Assembly (NCBI RefSeq): GCF_004366075.1
Contig: NZ_SODU01000001.1
Location: 62,001 to 126,000 of the forward strand
Length of the DNA: 64,000 nt
Direction: 5' to 3'
Source of the DNA: Kribbella pratensis
Lineage (GTDB): Bacteria > Actinomycetota > Actinomycetes > Propionibacteriales > Kribbellaceae
Part shown: positions 42,601 to 51,042 of the stretch, in pieces
How positions within the stretch are numbered: the first letter of the stretch is position 1
Layout of the letters: each line of letters starts with the position of its first letter
Program-made: the position numbers and the translations under genes
The notes under the pieces: generated by a model
Told to the model about the DNA's origin: nothing
Seen by the model: the letters and a program-made list of their open reading frames with translations, nothing else
The model's database searches: none

Positions 42601-43431
42601 GTGCATCCAGACGGGCTGCAGAGAGAACTCGGTAGGAGGGAACAGGGCGAGAACTTCCCTGTCGCGTTGAAGCTCCTCCCCGGCGCACCGCGGGAAGGCC
42701 TGCATGCCATCTACGCCTACGCGCGGACGGTCGATGAGCTGGGCGACAGCCTCCCCGGAGACCGTACGGCGGCCTTGCACGCCTTCGCGGACGACCTGGA
42801 CCGTATCTGGACCGACCGCCACCCGGCGCACCCCGTCCTGCGCCGGCTGGAACCGGTCGTCCGCGCCCACGGCCTGCCGGCCGATCCGTTCCACCGCCTG
42901 ATCCAGGCCAACCTGCAGGACCAGACGGTGACGCGCTACCGCACCTTCGACGATCTCGTCGGCTACTGCCGGCTGTCCGCCGATCCGGTCGGCCGGATGG
43001 TGCTAGGTGTCTTCCATGTCAATGATCCCGAAACCGAGCGGCTGTCCGACCTGGTGTGTACCGCGTTGCAGCTGGTCGAGCACTGGCAGGACGTCGCGGA
43101 GGATCGCCGGGCCGGACGGATCTACCTCCCGCAGGAGGACCTGACGTCGTACGGCGTCCCCGAGAGTGACCTCGACCAGCCCGCGGCGTCGGAGGCGCTG
43201 CGGCGGCTGATGATTTTCGAGACCGATCGGGCCGCGAGGATGCTCGCCGAAGGGGCCGCGATCGTGCGGCGGCTGCACGGCTGGGCGCGGGTATCGGTCG
43301 CCGGGTTCGTGGCCGGCGGGCAAGCCACGGTACGGGCGTTGCGCCGTACGGGCGGCGACGTACTGGCACACGAGGCGCGGCCGTCGAAGGCCGAAACGGT
43401 CCGTCTGTTGATCAAGGCGGTGGCGCGATGA
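42601..43431 (+). CDS. hpnC: Squalene synthase HpnC (hydroxysqualene synthase)
   Basis: A 276-residue trans-isoprenyl transferase. [16 protein letters not shown] carries the first Asp-rich site in the reduced HpnC form and [20 protein letters not shown] the second. HpnC converts presqualene diphosphate to hydroxysqualene in the HpnCDE route. It is the first gene of a seven-gene hopanoid operon; GTG 42601 is preceded by GGAAAG. It overlaps hpnD by ATGA. Confidence 0.92.
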
Positions 43432-44312
43432 AGCCGACGGTTGCCGAGGCCTACGCCGCCTGTTTGGACATCACCAGAGCGGAGGCGCGCAACTTCTATT
43501 ACGGCATCCGGCTGCTACCGCCTCCGAAACGCAATGCCTTGTCGGCGCTGTACGCACTCGCCCGGCGGATCGACGACATCGGCGACGGCGACCTGCCGTT
43601 GGAGGACAAGCGAAACGCGCTCGCCGGGGTCCGCAAGGATCTCGGCCGGCTCGACGACCTGGACGAACCGGTGTACGTCGCGGTGGCCGACGCCGCCCGT
43701 CGGTACCCGGTCCCGCTCGGTGCCTTCGAGGAGCTCGTCGCGGGGGTCGAGACGGACCTGTGCGACGTACGCATCGCGGACTTCGATGAGCTCGTCGTGT
43801 ACTGCCGCCGGGTCGCGGGATCCGTCGGTCGGCTCTGCTTGTCCATCTTCGGTCCCAGCACCGGGGGCACCGACTTCGAGACCCTCGCGCTGTACGCCGA
43901 CCAGCTCGGCATCGCTCTGCAGCAGACCAACATCCTGCGCGACATCCGCGAGGACTTCACCAACGGCCGGATCTACCTTCCGTCCGACGAGCTGGAGCAC
44001 TTCGGCGCCCGGGTCGCCCTCGACGAGCACGGCGCGCTCGATGACCCGCAAGGCCGGCTGGCCGGGTACATCCGGTACGCGGCCGGCCGGGCACAGGACT
44101 GGTACTCGCTCGGCTGGCGGCTGCTGCCGTACCTCGACCGGCGCAGCGGTGCGTCCTGCCGCGCGATGTCCGGTATCTACCATCACCTCCTGCGCCGGAT
44201 CGGCGCGAACCCTGTCCTCGTCTATGACCAGCGGTTGTCGCTGTCGGCGGGCGAGAAGGCCCAGGTCGCTCTCGCATCGTTGGCCGGACGACGGAAGTCG
44301 GTGCCGTCATGA
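43428..44312 (+). CDS. hpnD: Presqualene diphosphate synthase HpnD
   Basis: A 294-residue squalene/phytoene synthase family enzyme. [20 protein letters not shown], then [13 protein letters not shown] (first DxxxD site) and [20 protein letters not shown] (second site) are intact. It condenses two farnesyl diphosphates to presqualene diphosphate, passed to HpnC and HpnE. Four-base overlaps join it to hpnC before and hpnE after. Confidence 0.94.
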
Positions 44313-45649
44313 AGCGGGTGGCTGTCATCGGCGGCGGACTGGCGGGGATCACCGCTGCGCTCGAGCTGGCCGATGCGGGCTGTGCGGTGGCGCTGTTCGA
44401 GGCGCGGCCGAAGCTCGGCGGGCTGACACACTCGTTCGAACGGCACGGTCGGTGGATCGACAACGGCCAGCACGTGTTCCTTCGGTGCTGTACGTCGTAC
44501 CTGCGGCTGCTCGACCGTTTAGGGGTGCGGGATCAGGTGCAGCTGCAGCGGCGGCTCGATGTACCGGTGCGAAGCGGCCTGCACAGCGGTGTAGGGCGGA
44601 TCCGGCGGAACGGGATGCCTGCGCCGCTGCACCTTGGGCCTGCGTTGGCGTCGTACCGCTGGTTGAGTGTCGCGGAACGGGTTGCGGCGATGCGAGCGGC
44701 GCTGGCGATCGCACGGGTGGACCGTACGACTGCCGAAGCGGATGCACAGTCGTTCGGGGAGTGGCTGGCGGCGCACGGTCAGAGTCCGCGCGCGGTGGAG
44801 GCCTTGTGGGAGCTGATCGGGATCGCGACGCTCAACGCCCGGGCTGACGATGCGTCGCTGGCGGTGGCGGCGACGGTGTTCCAGCTCGGACTGCTCGAGC
44901 GGAGCGATGCCGCGGATATCGGATGGTCGTTGGTGCCGTTGCAGCAATTGCACGGTGATGCTGCGGCGCGGGTGTTGATGGCTGCGGGCGTCGCGGTGCG
45001 GTTGCGGGCCCGGATTCGTGCCCTGGAGGAGGGCGACGGTGCATGGGCGATCGAGGGGGAGGAGTACGACGACGTCGTACTGGCGGTGCCGCCGGCCGAG
45101 GCTGCAGGACTGCTGCCGGACGGTGCGGTGGAGCTGCCTGCAGGGTGGGCGGAGGCACTCGGTAGTTCGCCGATCGTCAATGCGCACGTGATTTTCGATC
45201 GGGCTGTGCTGCACGAGCCGTTCGTCGCCGGTGTCGACAGCCCGCTGCAGTGGGTGTTCGACCGGACGGTGCAGAGCTGCGGGGGAGTTCATGGCGACAG
45301 GGATGAGCAGTACCTCGCCGTCTCACTGTCGGCGGCGGACGAGCTGATCGACGCTCCGGTCGCGGACCTGCGTGAGGTGTTGGTGCCTGCTCTCCGGCAG
45401 TTGCTTCCCGCGGCTGCCGACGCGCGTGTGAAGGAGTTCTTCGTGACCCGAGAACGACATGCCACCTTCCGGGCGGCACCTGGCTCCGGCCGGCTCCGTC
45501 CGGGTGCGACCACGGCCCGCGCGGGCCTGCATCTCGCAGGTGCGTGGACCGCGACCGGCTGGCCCGCCACGATGGAAGGCGCCGTACGCAGCGGCGAGGC
45601 CGCGGCAGCCTCGGTGCTACAGACCTCAGCACTGCCGGTCGCGTCATGA
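44309..45649 (+). CDS. hpnE: Hydroxysqualene dehydroxylase HpnE
   Basis: A 446-residue FAD-dependent amine-oxidase-fold enzyme. The FAD loop is [20 protein letters not shown] (residues 4-23), with [20 protein letters not shown], a family hallmark, and a C-terminal FAD segment [20 protein letters not shown]. It reduces hydroxysqualene to squalene, completing HpnCDE. Coupled by ATGA overlaps on both sides. Confidence 0.93.
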
Positions 45650-46686
45650 CCGCCGTCGATCCGATGCCGTCGGCAACCAAGGTTCCGGATCTGTTGGCCC
45701 GTGCGCGGGACCTGGTCGAGCCTGCGCTGCGGCAGGCCGTGACCCGGCTCGACGACCAGACCCGGCTGGTCGCGTCCTACCACCTCGGATGGTGTGACGA
45801 GGACGGCCGGCCGACGACCGGCAGCTCTGGCAAGGCGATCCGGCCGGGGCTGACGCTGCTCGTCACCGAGGCGGTCTGCGGTACGCCGGATCCGGGTGTG
45901 CCCGGTGGTGTCGCGGTCGAGTTGGTGCACAACTTCTCGCTGATCCACGACGACCTGATGGACCGCGACAGCCGGCGCCGGCACCGCCGGACCGTCTGGG
46001 CTGTCTGGGGCGACGCCACCGCGATCCTGGTCGGGGACGCGCTGGCCTGTCTCGCCGACGAGGTGCTCGCGGAATGCGGCTCGCCGTACGCTGCCCGAGC
46101 CGGTCATGCACTGGCGGTCGCGACGCGGGAGCTGATTCGCGGACAGGTTCTCGACGTGGCCTTCGAGCAACGAGACGACGTCGGCCTGGCGGAATGCGTG
46201 GACATGGCCGTCGGCAAGACCGGCTCGTTGCTCGGGGCATCGGCCGAGCTCGGGGCGATCCTGGCCGGTGCTGACCCTGCGACGTGCGAGGCGTTCCGGA
46301 GATACGGGCGGGAGCTGGGGCTGGCGTTCCAGCTCGTCGACGACCTGCTGGGCATCTGGGGTACGCCGGAGCAGACCGGCAAACCGGTGTTCTCCGATCT
46401 GCGGGCGCACAAGAAGACGCTGCCGGTCGTGTGGTCCCTCGAGTACGGCGGGACGCCTGGGCAGGAACTGGCTGCGTGGCTCGCGGAGACCGGGGACCCG
46501 TCCGAGGACGACCTGCAGCACGCCGCCGTACTCGTGGAACGTGCGGGCGGACGCGAGTGGGCGATGGCCGAGGCCGCGGAGCGGGTGCGCCGAGCTGGCA
46601 GGGCCTTGTACGTCGGGGGCGTCCAGCCGGCCAACCGTGAGCAGCTCGATCAATTGGCCCAGTTTGTCGCGGAGCGTCAGCTGTGA
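45646..46686 (+). CDS. Polyprenyl diphosphate synthase
   Basis: A 346-residue trans-prenyl synthase. The first Asp-rich motif is DDLMD (102-106, HDDLMDRDSRRR) and the second is DDLLGIWG (from 232), in which the last Asp of the canonical motif is replaced, as is common in actinobacterial enzymes. KAIRPGLTLLVTEAV carries the diphosphate-binding basic region. In this operon it most likely makes farnesyl diphosphate for HpnD; chain length cannot be fixed from sequence alone. ATG 45646 overlaps the hpnE stop. Confidence 0.9.
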   Translation: MTAVDPMPSATKVPDLLARARDLVEPALRQAVTRLDDQTRLVASYHLGWCDEDGRPTTGSSGKAIRPGLTLLVTEAVCGTPDPGVPGGVAVELVHNFSLIHDDLMDRDSRRRHRRTVWAVWGDATAILVGDALACLADEVLAECGSPYAARAGHALAVATRELIRGQVLDVAFEQRDDVGLAECVDMAVGKTGSLLGASAELGAILAGADPATCEAFRRYGRELGLAFQLVDDLLGIWGTPEQTGKPVFSDLRAHKKTLPVVWSLEYGGTPGQELAAWLAETGDPSEDDLQHAAVLVERAGGREWAMAEAAERVRRAGRALYVGGVQPANREQLDQLAQFVAERQL

Positions 46687-48596
46687 CCGCCGAACGGGTG
46701 GCCGAGGAGTCGCGGGCCGACGTACAGGTGCAGGAATGCCTGGACGCCGCGGTGGCGTACCTGCGGTCGTTGCAGCACGAGGACGGATGGTGGAAGGGCG
46801 ACCTGGCGACGAACGTGACGATGGACGCCGAGGACCTGATGCTGCGGCACTTCCTCGGAGTGGCGACGGCGCGGACGGACGCGGAGACGGCGCGATGGAT
46901 CCGGTCGCAGCAGCGTGACGACGGGACGTGGGCGACGTTCCCCGGCGGGCCCGGGGACCTGTCGACGACGGTCGAGTCGTGGGTCGCGCTGCGGATGGCG
47001 GGGGAGGATCCGGAGGCGCCGCACCTGACGAAGGCGGCCGAGTTCGTCCGATCGGCGGGCGGGGTGGAGAAGGCCCGGGTGTTCACGCGCATCTGGCTCG
47101 CGCTGTTCGGGCTGTGGCCGTGGGACGCCTGCCCGGGCCTTCCGCCGGAGCTGATCTTCCTGCCGCGCTGGGCGCCGTTGAACGTCTACAACTGGGCGTG
47201 CTGGGCCCGTCAGACCATCGTGCCGCTGACCATCGTGAGTGCGCATCGCCCGGTCCGGCCGGTCGGCTTCACGATCGACGAACTGTTGTCGGGTCGTGCA
47301 GCGTCGGCGCATGCTCCGCTGTGGAACCTCGAAGGAGCGTTTCAACGATTGGACGTCGTACTGAACGCCTACACGCGGTGGGGGCCGCGCGGGCCGCTGA
47401 AGGCAGTGCGCCGGTTGGCGATGCGGCGGGCCACCGAGTGGATCGTGGCTCGGCAGGAGGCGGACGGCGGTTGGGGCGGCATTCAGCCCCCGTGGGTCTA
47501 TTCGCTGATCGCGCTGCAGTTGATGGGCTATCCGATCGACCATCCCGTGATGGCCGCGGGGCTGCGTGGGCTGGAAGGGTTCACGGTGCACGAGGAGACG
47601 GCCGACGGGCCAGTGCGCTGGTTGGAGGCCTGCCAGTCGCCGGTGTGGGACACCGGGCTCGCGGTGGCCGCGCTGCTCGATGCCGGCGTACCCGGGGACG
47701 ACCAGACGGTGCTCAAGGCAACTGATTGGCTACTGGCCGAACAGATCGACGCGCCGGGTGACTGGCAGGTCCGGCGGCCGGAACTGGTGTCGGGCGGGTG
47801 GGCGTTCGAGTTCGCGAACGACGGTTATCCCGACACCGACGACACCGCAGAGATCGTCCTCGCACTCCGTCGGGTCGAGCATCCCGAACCGGAGCGATTG
47901 CGGTCAGCGCTGGACAACGCGGTCGCGTGGACGACCGGCATGCAGTCGGCCGACGGGGGATGGGCTGCGTTCGACGCCGACAACACGGACACGACTGCGC
48001 TGAAGTTGCCGTTCTGCGACTTCGGTGCCGTGATCGACCCGCCGTCGGCCGACGTCACCGCGCACGTGGTGGAGATGCTGGCGGCGGAAGGGAAGGTTGA
48101 CACGGACGAGTGCCGGCGCGGCGTTCGGTGGTTGCTGGCCGCGCAGGAGGACGACGGATCCTGGTTCGGTCGCTGGGGGACGAACCACGTGTACGGCACG
48201 GGGGCGGTGGTCCCGGCTCTGATCGCGGTCGGGATGCGGACTGACGATCCCGTCATCCGGCGGGCGGTGCGATGGGTGGAAGAGCACCAGAATCCGGACG
48301 GTGGCTGGGGCGAGGATCTGCGCTCGTACGTCGACCCGTCCTGGATCGGCCGAGGTGACTCCACGCCGTCGCAGACCGCGTGGGCCCTGCTGACCTTGCT
48401 GGCCGCCGAGTCCCGTGGCGAGGCCGTGCAGCGGGGACTCGCGTACCTCGTCGACACGCAGCGACCGGACGGCGGCTGGGACGAGCACCGGTACACCGGC
48501 ACAGGGTTCCCCGGCGACTTCTACATCGGCTACCACCTGTACCGCTTGGTCTTTCCGATCTGGGCCTTGGGCCGCTACCTGAGGAGCACGCGATGA
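46683..48596 (+). CDS. shc: Squalene-hopene cyclase
   Basis: A 637-residue class II triterpene cyclase. The catalytic DXDD motif is DTDD at 384-387 (YPDTDDTAEIVLAL). Several QW repeats are present, e.g. DGGWGGIQPPWVY, DGGWAAFDADN, DGSWFGRWGTNHVYGTGAVV and DGGWDEHRYTGTGFPGDFYI. It protonates squalene and cyclises it to hopene or hopanol, membrane-bound as a monotopic protein. GTG 46683 overlaps the previous stop, and its own stop overlaps the fusion gene that follows. Confidence 0.95.
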   Translation: MTAERVAEESRADVQVQECLDAAVAYLRSLQHEDGWWKGDLATNVTMDAEDLMLRHFLGVATARTDAETARWIRSQQRDDGTWATFPGGPGDLSTTVESWVALRMAGEDPEAPHLTKAAEFVRSAGGVEKARVFTRIWLALFGLWPWDACPGLPPELIFLPRWAPLNVYNWACWARQTIVPLTIVSAHRPVRPVGFTIDELLSGRAASAHAPLWNLEGAFQRLDVVLNAYTRWGPRGPLKAVRRLAMRRATEWIVARQEADGGWGGIQPPWVYSLIALQLMGYPIDHPVMAAGLRGLEGFTVHEETADGPVRWLEACQSPVWDTGLAVAALLDAGVPGDDQTVLKATDWLLAEQIDAPGDWQVRRPELVSGGWAFEFANDGYPDTDDTAEIVLALRRVEHPEPERLRSALDNAVAWTTGMQSADGGWAAFDADNTDTTALKLPFCDFGAVIDPPSADVTAHVVEMLAAEGKVDTDECRRGVRWLLAAQEDDGSWFGRWGTNHVYGTGAVVPALIAVGMRTDDPVIRRAVRWVEEHQNPDGGWGEDLRSYVDPSWIGRGDSTPSQTAWALLTLLAAESRGEAVQRGLAYLVDTQRPDGGWDEHRYTGTGFPGDFYIGYHLYRLVFPIWALGRYLRSTR

Positions 48597-50044
48597 GCGG
48601 CGTCGTCTGCACGCCTCTCTACGCCGAGTGGCTGGCGCTCCGAGCGGCACGCCCCGTTCACACCGGCCGTTCTCGCGGATCCCGGCACGAAGGCCCGGTC
48701 CTCGTTGCAGGGGTCGCCGGCGCGCTGGTCGACGGAATCGCCCCGGGAGACCTGGTCGTTGCGACCGAGATCCAACACCACCAGCGAACAGTGAGCTGTG
48801 ATGCCGCTCCTTTTGTCGTGGGGGAGTTGCGTCGGCGGGGGTTCACCGTGCATGCGGGGCGTGTCGTGACCACTGATCACGTTGTTGACTCGCCCGCGGA
48901 GCGGGCCGCGTTGGCGGCGCAGGGAGCTGTTGCCGTTGACACCGAGTCGGCGCTGCTGGCCGGCGGCGACGGGCGGACCGTGGTGGTTCGCGCGGTGGTG
49001 GATACGCCGGGGCGGCCCCTTCGGGCGTGGGGGATGCCCGCGCGCGGAGTGCGTGCACTGCGAGAGTTGCGGCGTACGGCGGGAGTGATCAACGCGTGGA
49101 GCGCGGCCACTGGTGAGCGAGAGGTGCTGCTGGCCGGGCCGCGGTCGTTCTGCGCTGGTGTGGAGCGGGCAATCGAGACGGTCGAGCGAGCCCTGGAGCG
49201 ATTCGGTGCGCCGGTGTACGTACGCCGGCAGATCGTCCACAACCGGCACGTCGTCAGCGACCTCGAACGCCGCGGCGCGGTATTCGTCGAGGAGGTCGAC
49301 GCGGTCCCGGAAGGCAGCCTGCTCGTGCTCGCGGCGCACGGCGTCGCTCCCGCGGTACGCGCCCAGGCGGCCGAGCGTCAGCTCCGCGTCGTCGACGCCA
49401 CCTGCCCACTGGTCGCCAAGGTCCACCAAGAAGTACGACGGTACGCCGACCACGACGACACCGTCGTACTCATCGGGCACGCCGACCACGAGGAGGTCGT
49501 CGGGACGACGGGCGAGGCGCCCGGCCACGTGCTCGTCGTCGCCGGACCCGCCGAGGCCGAAACGATCCAGGTGCCGGACCCGACCAGGGTCGCCTACGCG
49601 ATGCAGACCACCCTCGCCGTCGAGGAAGCCTCCGAAACCGCTGCCGTCCTCCGACGGCGATTCCCGGCGCTCAAAGGTCCTCGCACCGACGACATCTGCT
49701 ACGCCACCAGCAACCGCCAGGCGGGCGTCCGCGCCATCGCCAGGCAGTCCGACCTGGTGATCGTGCTCGGTTCCCAGAATTCGTCGAACTCCCGCCGGCT
49801 TGCCGAGGTCGCAGAGGCTGCGGGAGCCCCCGCAGTCCTCATCGACGACGCCACCGAGCTGGAGCTCGCCCGCTTGGCCGGCGCGACCAGGATCGGCATC
49901 ACAGCAGGCGCGTCCGCCCCGCCAACACTCGTCGACGAACTTGTCCGCTGCCTGTCGGGCCTGGGGCCGGTCATGGTGACCGAGGCCGGCGAGCTGACCG
50001 AGGACATCCGTTTCGCGCTACCGAAAGAGGTGAGTCAGGCGTGA
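48593..50044 (+). CDS. ispH: Fusion: nucleoside-phosphorylase-like (HpnG) domain with IspH
   Basis: A 483-residue two-domain protein. Residues 1-175 resemble the hopanoid phosphorylase HpnG (PVLVAGVAGALVDGIAPGDL, HQRTVSCDAAP, AVAVDTESALLA). Residues 177-483 are a full IspH (4-hydroxy-3-methylbut-2-enyl diphosphate reductase) with three [4Fe-4S] cysteines, Cys187, Cys271 and Cys369, and the catalytic Glu301 in GHADHEEVVGTTG. No stop or frameshift separates them. IspH makes IPP and DMAPP; HpnG would release ribose-bearing hopanoid from adenosylhopane. HpnH, the preceding enzyme for the HpnG reaction, is coded next with a GTGA overlap. Confidence 0.9.
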   Translation: MSGVVCTPLYAEWLALRAARPVHTGRSRGSRHEGPVLVAGVAGALVDGIAPGDLVVATEIQHHQRTVSCDAAPFVVGELRRRGFTVHAGRVVTTDHVVDSPAERAALAAQGAVAVDTESALLAGGDGRTVVVRAVVDTPGRPLRAWGMPARGVRALRELRRTAGVINAWSAATGEREVLLAGPRSFCAGVERAIETVERALERFGAPVYVRRQIVHNRHVVSDLERRGAVFVEEVDAVPEGSLLVLAAHGVAPAVRAQAAERQLRVVDATCPLVAKVHQEVRRYADHDDTVVLIGHADHEEVVGTTGEAPGHVLVVAGPAEAETIQVPDPTRVAYAMQTTLAVEEASETAAVLRRRFPALKGPRTDDICYATSNRQAGVRAIARQSDLVIVLGSQNSSNSRRLAEVAEAAGAPAVLIDDATELELARLAGATRIGITAGASAPPTLVDELVRCLSGLGPVMVTEAGELTEDIRFALPKEVSQA

Positions 50045-51042
50045 CCATGCCGCTGCGGCAGTCCATCCGCCTGGGCAGCTACCTGATGAAACAGAAGCTT
50101 CGGCGCCGGGAGAAGTTCCCGATCCTGCTCGAGCTCGAGCCGCTGTACGCGTGCAATCTGAAGTGTGCCGGCTGCGGCAAGATCCAGCAGACCCACGACT
50201 GGCTGAAGCAGCGGATGCCCGTCGAGCAGGCCGTCGCGGCGGTCGAGGAGTGCGGTGCGCCGATGGTGTCGATCGCCGGCGGCGAACCGCTGATGCACAA
50301 GGAGATCGACGAGATCGTCCGGCAACTGCTGGCGCGGAACAAGATCGTGTTCCTCTGCACCAACGCCGTACTGCTGCCGAAACACCTGCACAAGTTCACG
50401 CCACACCGGAACTTCGCCTGGATGGTCCACATCGACGGGCTGCGGGACCGTCACGACCAGTCGGTGTGCAAGGACGGCGTGTTCGACCAGGCGGTCGACG
50501 CGATCAAGCAGGCGCAGGCGGCCGGCTTCCGGGTGATGACCAACACGACGTTCTTCGACACCGACAGCCCGCAGGACGTGATCGACGTCCTCGACTACCT
50601 GAACGACGACCTGCACGTGGACAACATGCAGATCTCCCCGGGGTTCGCGTACGAGAAGGCGCCCGACCAGGAGCACTGGCTCGGCCCGGACGAGACCCGG
50701 CAGTTGTTCCGGAAGGCGTTCGGCGACGGGCGGCGGAAGCGCTGGCGGCTGAACCACTCGCCGCTGTTCCTCGACTTCCTGGAGGGCAAGGTCGACTTCG
50801 ACTGTACGGCGTGGGCGATCCCGCTGTACTCGCTGAAGGGCTGGCAGCGGCCCTGTTACCTGATGGACGACGGGTACGTCGAGACGTACCAGCAACTCCT
50901 CGACGAAACCGACTGGTCCAAGTACGGCCGCGGCCGCGACCCTCGCTGCGCCAACTGCATGGCCCACTGCGGCTACGAACCAACCGCCGTAGTAGCAACC
51001 CTGGGCTCCCTCCGAGAATCGATCCGCGCAGCCATCAGTTAG
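50041..51042 (+). CDS. hpnH: Adenosyl-hopene transferase HpnH (radical SAM)
   Basis: A 333-residue radical-SAM enzyme. The cluster motif is C38-x3-C42-x2-C45 (YACNLKCAGCGKIQQ), followed by SIAGGEPLMHKEIDEIVRQL and a C-terminal cysteine cluster (DPRCANCMAHCGYEPTA), matching HpnH. It adds the 5'-deoxyadenosyl group to hopene (diploptene) as the first step to extended C35 hopanoids. Start GTG 50041 overlaps the previous stop; ATG 50047 is an alternative. It ends the operon. Confidence 0.93.
   Translation: MTMPLRQSIRLGSYLMKQKLRRREKFPILLELEPLYACNLKCAGCGKIQQTHDWLKQRMPVEQAVAAVEECGAPMVSIAGGEPLMHKEIDEIVRQLLARNKIVFLCTNAVLLPKHLHKFTPHRNFAWMVHIDGLRDRHDQSVCKDGVFDQAVDAIKQAQAAGFRVMTNTTFFDTDSPQDVIDVLDYLNDDLHVDNMQISPGFAYEKAPDQEHWLGPDETRQLFRKAFGDGRRKRWRLNHSPLFLDFLEGKVDFDCTAWAIPLYSLKGWQRPCYLMDDGYVETYQQLLDETDWSKYGRGRDPRCANCMAHCGYEPTAVVATLGSLRESIRAAIS

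What the first reader, a model, noticed from the sequence alone, without database searches (positions are those of the whole stretch)
48593..50044. HpnG-like phosphorylase fused to IspH in a hopanoid operon
One uninterrupted ORF joins a nucleoside-phosphorylase-like domain (1-175) to a complete IspH (177-483) with all three cluster cysteines (187, 271, 369) and Glu301. In other hopanoid clusters known to me HpnG is separate and IspH sits elsewhere. The fusion would tie isoprenoid supply to extended-hopanoid side-chain processing. The phosphorylase half is short (about 175 residues), so its activity needs proof.
Basis: partly seen in the sequence, partly recalled or inferred. Interest (0 to 1): 0.72.

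Follow-up and report, generated by a model that had tools for sequence, protein, structure and literature searches.

The report
Hopanoid nucleosidase-like enzyme fused to IspH
A soil actinobacterium makes one protein that joins an early isoprenoid enzyme (IspH) to a late hopanoid side-chain enzyme (HpnG-like); the fusion is real, recurs in hopanoid operons of many actinobacteria, and seems to have left a worn-down remnant of its first half on IspH genes in a second kind of gene cluster.

Summary
In detail: window 48593-50044 is one 483-residue ORF with a PNP/UDP-phosphorylase-superfamily domain (about 1-172) and a complete IspH (177-483). It is no one-off: it is in 21 of 58 relatives, exactly those with HpnH, in 42 of 80 HpnH-positive genomes tested in the class, and in 60 named loci, 53 with SHC directly upstream. 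The IspH half keeps its active site; the first half keeps MTAN-type catalytic residues, but in Kribbella lacks one helix. All 63 fusion genomes checked have a second IspH. Trees suggest an old fusion, repeatedly split. Twelve IspHs of non-hopanoid clusters, 8 of them near encapsulin shell genes, carry an HpnG-like fragment without catalytic segments. Best reading: a hopanoid-dedicated IspH joined to an adenosylhopane-cleaving enzyme; neither activity was tested. The bare fusion is in print for Frankia (PMC4746011) without a hopanoid link. The curated HpnG cut-off was not met, so 'HpnG-like' is the safe name.

The parts
48593..50044 (+). HpnG-like::IspH fusion gene, 483 aa
48593..49108 (+). First half (about residues 1-172), PNP/UDP-phosphorylase fold, compact; catalytic-type residues E12, D116, E118, R133, D137
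49121..50041 (+). IspH half (residues 177-483) with C187, H216, H249, C271, H299, E301, T339, C369, S397, N399, S441
48593..48596 (+). ATGA overlap of SHC stop and fusion start (suggests translational coupling, inferred)
50041..50044 (+). GTGA overlap of fusion stop and HpnH start
42601..43431 (+). HpnC (TIGR03464 over cut-off)
43428..44312 (+). HpnD-like (TIGR03465, 272.4 bits, just under cut-off 278.6)
44309..45649 (+). HpnE (TIGR03467 over cut-off)
45544..46686 (+). Polyprenyl diphosphate synthase; best NCBIfam match is the family 2 encapsulin cargo polyprenyl transferase (432 bits, cut-off 450); true start uncertain
46683..48596 (+). Squalene-hopene cyclase (TIGR01507 over cut-off)
50041..51042 (+). 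HpnH, adenosyl-hopene transferase (TIGR03470 over cut-off)

Best explanation
One polypeptide with two working enzymes of the same lipid pathway. The IspH half is a second, hopanoid-dedicated HMBPP reductase that supplies IPP/DMAPP for squalene and hopene. The HpnG-like half removes adenine from adenosylhopane made by the next gene, HpnH, giving ribosylhopane or its phosphate. The two steps are not consecutive, so channelling between the two active sites is unlikely; the link most likely fixes co-expression and stoichiometry and may hold IspH near the hopanoid machinery. In Kribbella and its nearest relatives in the tree the first half is a trimmed version. SHOWN by computation: fusion, synteny, residue conservation, predicted folds, trees. 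INFERRED: both activities, and the benefit of the link.
For: Co-occurrence: 21 of 58 relatives have HpnH over cut-off, and the same 21 have the fusion. IspH site residues: 11 of 12 counted positions unchanged in 102 of 102 fused rows, S398 being S in 84 and A in 18. In 101 first halves: E12 98, D116 101, E118 100, R133 101, D137 100; E118, R133 and D137 align with E. coli MTAN 'EMEA...VVRAISD'. Models: pLDDT 93.3, pTM 0.89; residues 1-171 on MTAN 4f3c Z 19.8, rmsd 2.2, 170 aligned; IspH half on 3f7t Z 38.7, rmsd 1.9, 307 aligned. dN/dS well under 1 in both halves. Supply genes gather round this kind of IspH: dxs in 14 and ispG in 3 of 60 named hopanoid loci; polyprenyl synthase in 18, dxs in 10 and ispG in 7 of the 20 non-hopanoid loci.
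Against: No activity is measured. All fusion genomes checked also have a separate IspH (42 of 42, 21 of 21), so the extra copy is not proven needed. In Kribbella the Gly-x-Gly loop and the helix after it are gone and the Met before the catalytic-type Glu is Thr. Alone, the Kribbella first half finds no significant solved structure by sequence (best E 0.041); the likeness rests on profiles and fold. No genome of the 58 has an HpnG over the family cut-off, and in 4 of 14 Kribbella fusion genomes (G009, G010, G018, G030) another nucleosidase-like locus scores higher on the HpnG model than the fusion does, so another gene could in principle do the step. Either half has been lost elsewhere, so the link is not essential.
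Confidence: 0.62

Rival explanations
1. In Kribbella the first half is no longer an enzyme: a structural, docking or stability module on a working IspH.
For: Lost loop and helix, Met to Thr next to the catalytic-type Glu, low-complexity insertions seen by eye in three species rows; in 4 of 14 Kribbella fusion genomes another locus scores higher on the HpnG model; related IspHs keep an HpnG-like fragment without catalytic segments, so dead remnants do persist.
Against: E12, D116, E118, R133 and D137 are invariant in the 21-row alignment that holds all 14 Kribbella rows; median dN/dS of the first half is no higher than in the fuller relatives (0.27 against 0.33); in the window's genome the fusion is the best HpnG-model match (56.1 bits against 41.6 for the next) and HpnH is present.
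Confidence: 0.22
2. Both halves work, but the covalent link has no function: a passive consequence of an old gene joining in a tightly overlapped operon.
For: Neighbouring genes overlap by 4 bases; standalone HpnG rows need at least five label changes on the tree, so splitting is tolerated.
Against: Retention across eight families of the class draw and in three genomes outside the class.
Confidence: 0.3
3. The IspH half has been repurposed to reduce ribosylhopane to bacteriohopanetetrol, a step with no assigned enzyme.
For: It was an extra IspH copy in all 63 fusion genomes checked; the enzyme for ribosylhopane to BHT is described as not established (PMC12583986, passages); the fusion partner would make the substrate of that step.
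Against: The HMBPP-site residues are kept; related IspHs sit in non-hopanoid clusters, 10 of 20 with dxs; in the 6 standalone-HpnG loci laid out there is no IspH between HpnG and HpnH.
Confidence: 0.04
4. Sequencing or assembly artefact.
For: None found.
Against: Recurs in many separate assemblies with conserved protein sequence.
Confidence: 0.01

Closest known systems
UDP/PNP phosphorylase-IspH fusion of Frankia sp. QA3, EUN1f, EAN1pec (Rao et al. 2015, PMC4746011, passages read)
   Same: Same two domains in the same order; records named Frankia are among the loci here.
   Different: [quoted passage not shown] Here it recurs in many families, in hopanoid operons, and is HpnG-like.
IspH-RPS1 and IspH-UbiA fusions (same paper)
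   Same: IspH joined to another domain in one ORF.
   Different: Different partner domains.
HpnG, TIGR03468 (hopanoid-associated phosphorylase)
   Same: Superfamily, place next to HpnH, catalytic-type residues.
   Different: Scores 53.8 bits against a cut-off of 187.1; a standalone actinobacterial HpnG next to HpnH is also far below it (77.4 bits, L081).
MTA/SAH nucleosidase (MTAN)
   Same: Most rows of the nearest fold matches for the first half; shared E, R and D residues.
   Different: About 20% identity; shorter; hopanoid operon context; far below the MTAN family cut-off.
Family 2 encapsulin polyprenyl transferase clusters (PMC8346489, passages)
   Same: The polyprenyl synthases and IspHs of the non-hopanoid loci, 16 of 20 with a shell gene, are kin of the hopanoid operon's.
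   Different: No SHC or HpnH hit in those loci; HpnG reduced to a fragment or absent.

Membership tests
IspH (TIGR00216, PF02401) | Score over curated cut-offs | tested here: met
   300.3 against 187.85; 306.6 against 24.5. Three longer NCBIfam IspH models (NF002188, NF002189, NF002190) fall just under theirs
IspH | Three cluster cysteines, catalytic Glu and HMBPP-pocket residues | tested here: met
   the role of each site is recalled knowledge
IspH | HMBPP reductase activity | not testable with these tools
   needs assay
PNP/UDP phosphorylase superfamily (PF01048) | Score over curated cut-off and fold | tested here: met
   35.1 against 25.1; Z 19.8 to MTAN 4f3c
HpnG (TIGR03468) | Score over curated cut-off | tested here: not met
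   53.8 against 187.1; 0 of 58 genomes reach it; a standalone HpnG next to HpnH in another genus scores 77.4
HpnG | Adjacent to HpnH in a hopanoid operon | tested here: met
HpnG | Only or best candidate in the genome | tested here: inconclusive
   Best model match in G000 and in 17 of the 21 fusion genomes; not in G009, G010, G018, G030
HpnG | Cleaves adenine from adenosylhopane | not testable with these tools
   needs assay
MTAN (TIGR01704) | Score over curated cut-off | tested here: not met
   11.7 bits against 73.8 for residues 1-174
Phosphorylase-IspH fusion of Rao 2015 | Phosphorylase-type domain N-terminal to IspH in one ORF | tested here: met

The most novel reading that the evidence does not exclude
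The HpnG-like fold has had a second life as a non-catalytic module on IspH. A block 'polyprenyl synthase ... HpnG::IspH' left a hopanoid operon, lost SHC and most of HpnG, and joined family 2 encapsulin/terpenoid clusters, often with dxs and ispG; there a dead HpnG fragment is kept on IspH in some lineages, perhaps to dock or target it, while in hopanoid operons the full fusion anchors precursor supply to hopanoid assembly.
Probability: 0.2. Interest if true: 0.75.

Novelty: new variant of a known kind. Interest (0 to 1): 0.5.

Why it matters
It turns a footnoted Frankia oddity into a recurrent feature of actinobacterial hopanoid operons, marks a pathway-dedicated IspH, gives a single protein in which hopanoid precursor supply and side-chain processing can be tested together, and shows by decay how a hopanoid gene block may have seeded encapsulin-linked terpenoid clusters. 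It also bears on whether HpnG is a phosphorylase or a nucleosidase.

Tried and rejected
Artefact or chance ORF joining: rejected. Repurposed IspH: held unlikely. Extra relaxation of selection on the Kribbella first half: not seen. The curated HpnG model could not serve as a yes/no test: its matches at E 0.001 ring in 12 of 14 control genomes, its cut-off in none. The coding-bias gene caller preferred an antisense ORF over this gene; conservation decided. In the VIA lists absence of a family proves nothing.

Limits of the counts. One search took 80 of the 87 HpnH-positive genomes besides G000 (7 of family f20 left out by the 80-handle limit), and its match list was cut at the weak end; counts from it were made by eye on the listed rows. 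One search lost L115, L118 and L132 (motif not found) and exact duplicates; its support for the split is 86 (SH-aLRT, quick method, below the starred level), starred branches alone force only one change for the fused group, and two of the 27 non-hopanoid rows (L023, L178) lie outside the clan of the other 25. One search lost L012 (short), some of its rows hold residues upstream of true starts, several standalone rows have long branches, and 9 of its 14 standalone rows are from one family. One search lost 7 incomplete rows. All trees are midpoint-rooted; the remnant group was chosen by eye, so 12 of 12 is partly by construction; the training rows hold some residues upstream of true starts; 4 of the 12 (L167, L168, L177, L181) had been fetched on IspH plus at most about 20 residues before it, and match in the middle of the domain all the same. 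One search compares saturating dS. The A6 alignment held one wrongly cut row and was not used for any conclusion.

Nothing-in-print claim: beyond PMC4746011 no paper linking HpnG and IspH in one protein was seen in searches (open-licence PMC only; listings, and passages of ten papers).
Full report
WHAT IS THERE. Window 48593-50044 (+) is one ORF of 483 codons. Pfam finds PNP_UDP_1 at 36-123 and LYTB at 178-454, both over their cut-offs. NCBIfam gives IspH over cut-off (TIGR00216, 300.3 bits) and HpnG (TIGR03468) at 53.8 bits, well under its cut-off of 187.1. The gene lies in HpnC-HpnD-HpnE-polyprenyl synthase-SHC-[fusion]-HpnH, overlapping SHC and HpnH by four bases each. The genome holds a second IspH elsewhere, 52% identical. 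The genus is Kribbella: two genomes of the same genus group carry stretches identical to named Kribbella records (86 of 86 sampled 200-base words each).

HOW FAR IT SPREADS. Of 58 relatives searched, 21 hold a full-length fusion (14 of 37 in the genus, 7 in another family of the order). The same 21, and no others, have HpnH over its cut-off. None of the 58 has an HpnG over cut-off; the fusion is the best HpnG-model match in 17 of the 21, but not in four Kribbella genomes (G009, G010, G018, G030), where another nucleosidase-like locus scores higher. In a class-wide draw, 88 of 393 genomes have HpnH. A profile spanning the junction was run on 80 of the 87 besides G000: 42 have one match across the junction, in eight families (one of them, G251, only from position 41 on); the other 38 do not: 33 of family f20, whose size and content suggest Streptomyces though no call names it, and 5 others. 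There a standalone HpnG adjoins HpnH (by eye; for G317 the standalone HpnG was seen only). In a phylum-wide draw 4 of 396 have it, G000 and three outside the class. A scan of named genomes, capped at its best 80 loci, gave 60 loci with the fusion, L102-L161, among them records named Frankia, Amycolatopsis, Pseudonocardia, Actinomadura, Nonomuraea, Micromonospora, Nocardia, Rhodococcus, Nocardioides, Modestobacter, and Thermoleophilia and Acidimicrobiaceae MAGs. All 60 have HpnH downstream (0 to 95 bases in 57, up to 3950 in L112). SHC directly precedes in 53; in L107, L122 and L161 the contig begins too close; in L115 and L118 SHC lies further upstream; in L132 HpnE precedes; in L150 none of the reference genes was found in 5 kb upstream. 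In L159 the first half was too diverged to be marked in the layout.

THE ISPH HALF. It aligns end to end with E. coli IspH (3.6e-89), and its model superposes on it with Z 38.7, rmsd 1.9, 307 aligned. Twelve recalled active-site positions were counted: eleven are unchanged in 102 of 102 fused rows, 12 of 12 remnant-bearing rows, 15 of 15 other non-hopanoid rows and 23 of 23 remaining IspHs; S398 is S in 84 and A in 18 of the 102. The fusion genomes checked have another IspH as well (42 of 42; 21 of 21). The half is therefore best read as an extra, pathway-dedicated HMBPP reductase; that is inference.

THE FIRST HALF. As a profile of fused relatives it matches MTA/SAH nucleosidases of known structure (8.8e-13; 4.4e-11); purine and uridine phosphorylases follow with weaker scores. 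The Kribbella sequence alone reaches only E 0.041. E118, R133 and D137 fall on the E, R and D of E. coli MTAN; that these are catalytic or substrate-binding in MTAN, as E12 is, is recalled. In 101 first halves E12 is kept in 98, D116 in 101, E118 in 100, R133 in 101 and D137 in 100; one MAG (L159) has E118 and D137 changed. Compared with the fuller relative L018, the Kribbella model lacks helix 38-50, and its sequence lacks the Gly-Met-Gly loop, yet it is confident (pLDDT 93.3, pTM 0.89) and fits MTAN 4f3c with Z 19.8 against 23.2 for L018. Between the Gly25 and Gly40 columns 11 Kribbella rows have 14 residues, the other three 16, 18 and 33; Nocardia 18, Rhodococcus and Aldersonia 16, Nocardioides 14; the 80 rows outside these and Modestobacter (20) have a median of 24 (15 to 36). 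The trimmed rows lie together in the first-half tree (99/96). Median dN/dS is no higher than in the fuller family f4 (0.27 against 0.33).

HISTORY. The IspH-half tree puts 23 other IspHs on one side (support 86) and all 102 fused plus 27 related non-hopanoid IspHs on the other; 25 of the 27 form one starred clan (98). The first-half tree scatters 14 standalone HpnGs through the fused ones; six label changes are needed and starred branches force at least five. One old joining followed by repeated loss of the IspH half is the simplest reading; with midpoint rooting and no outgroup phyla this is inference. In Kribbella the operon's proteins group with Nocardioides and Nocardiaceae rather than with the other family of its own order, hinting at transfer.

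A DECAY SERIES. Loci L162-L181 carry an IspH of the fused side of the tree without any SHC or HpnH hit; polyprenyl synthase is in 18 of the 20, dxs in 10, ispG in 7. In 12 the IspH has an N-terminal extension that matches the HpnG-like profile (E 7e-11 to 4e-4; best of 240 shuffled controls 0.13; 0 of 15 other non-hopanoid IspHs, 8 of them in these loci and 7 from Kribbella genomes; 1 of 23 remaining IspHs at E 7.1) (group chosen by eye, see limits). The matched part is the middle of the domain; segments with the catalytic-type residues were not seen in the printed sequences. Sixteen of the 20 loci, 8 of the 12 with the remnant, hold a family 2 encapsulin shell gene; none of 81 hopanoid loci does. 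One shell was typed as family 2B (L164). The polyprenyl synthases of 18 of these loci form one clan (99/96), grouped with those of two hopanoid operons (99/95). So a block from a hopanoid operon appears to have been recruited, leaving HpnG as a fossil.

LITERATURE. Rao et al. 2015 (PMC4746011, passages) list a UDP/PNP phosphorylase-IspH fusion in three Frankia strains, note that the single-example fusions could be random, and a term search found no 'hopan'. A Frankia alni proteome (PMC10252897, passages) lists SHC FRAAL1432 and 'HMBPP reductase' FRAAL1433 among proteins overabundant in propionate-fed cells (4.23 and 5.12 fold); that FRAAL1433 is the fusion is inferred from its number next to SHC. 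The step from ribosylhopane to BHT is described as unassigned (PMC12583986, passages). Encapsulin-linked polyprenyl transferases are known (PMC8346489, passages); the terms LytB, hydroxymethylbut and DXS gave no occurrence there.

VERDICT. The bare fusion is known from one genus; its HpnG-like identity, spread, operon context, trimming and fossil remnants were not found in print in the searches made. The name HpnG is used as a working likeness, since the curated cut-off was tested and not met. On checking, confidence in the bifunctional reading was lowered from 0.65 to 0.62 because in four Kribbella genomes another locus scores higher on the HpnG model.

Noticed in passing
L162-L168, L175-L177, L180, L181 (N-terminal extension of the IspH ORFs): IspHs of non-hopanoid clusters carry a fragment of the HpnG-like domain without its catalytic segments.
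   Followed up: partly
L164, L165, L167-L174, L176-L181: Family 2 encapsulin shell genes lie in 16 of the 20 non-hopanoid IspH loci, with terpene synthase hits in nine of them.
   Followed up: partly
window 45544-46686: The hopanoid operon's polyprenyl synthase matches the family 2 encapsulin cargo model best (432 bits, cut-off 450).
   Followed up: partly
G042:C1:3476127-3477359 and G055:C1:4470324-4471280: Second HpnH copies; in G042 two short IspH pieces lie just upstream, as if a second fusion had decayed.
   Followed up: no
L159: A MAG whose fused first half has changed the Glu and Asp otherwise kept in 100 of 101 rows.
   Followed up: no
L150 upstream of 5004: An Amycolatopsis fusion locus whose first half looks cut short and with no hopanoid gene found in 5 kb upstream; truncation or misassembly.
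   Followed up: no
L008, L011, L012 (first half, near residue 62 of the window protein): Low-complexity or repeated insertions in a loop of the Kribbella first half (by eye).
   Followed up: no
L153: A contig labelled Melainabacteria holds the same operon; transfer or a binning error.
   Followed up: no
PDB 9ql0: An E. coli IspH structure titled as crystallized with adenosine hemisulfate; odd beside an adenine-releasing partner, but no link is shown.
   Followed up: no
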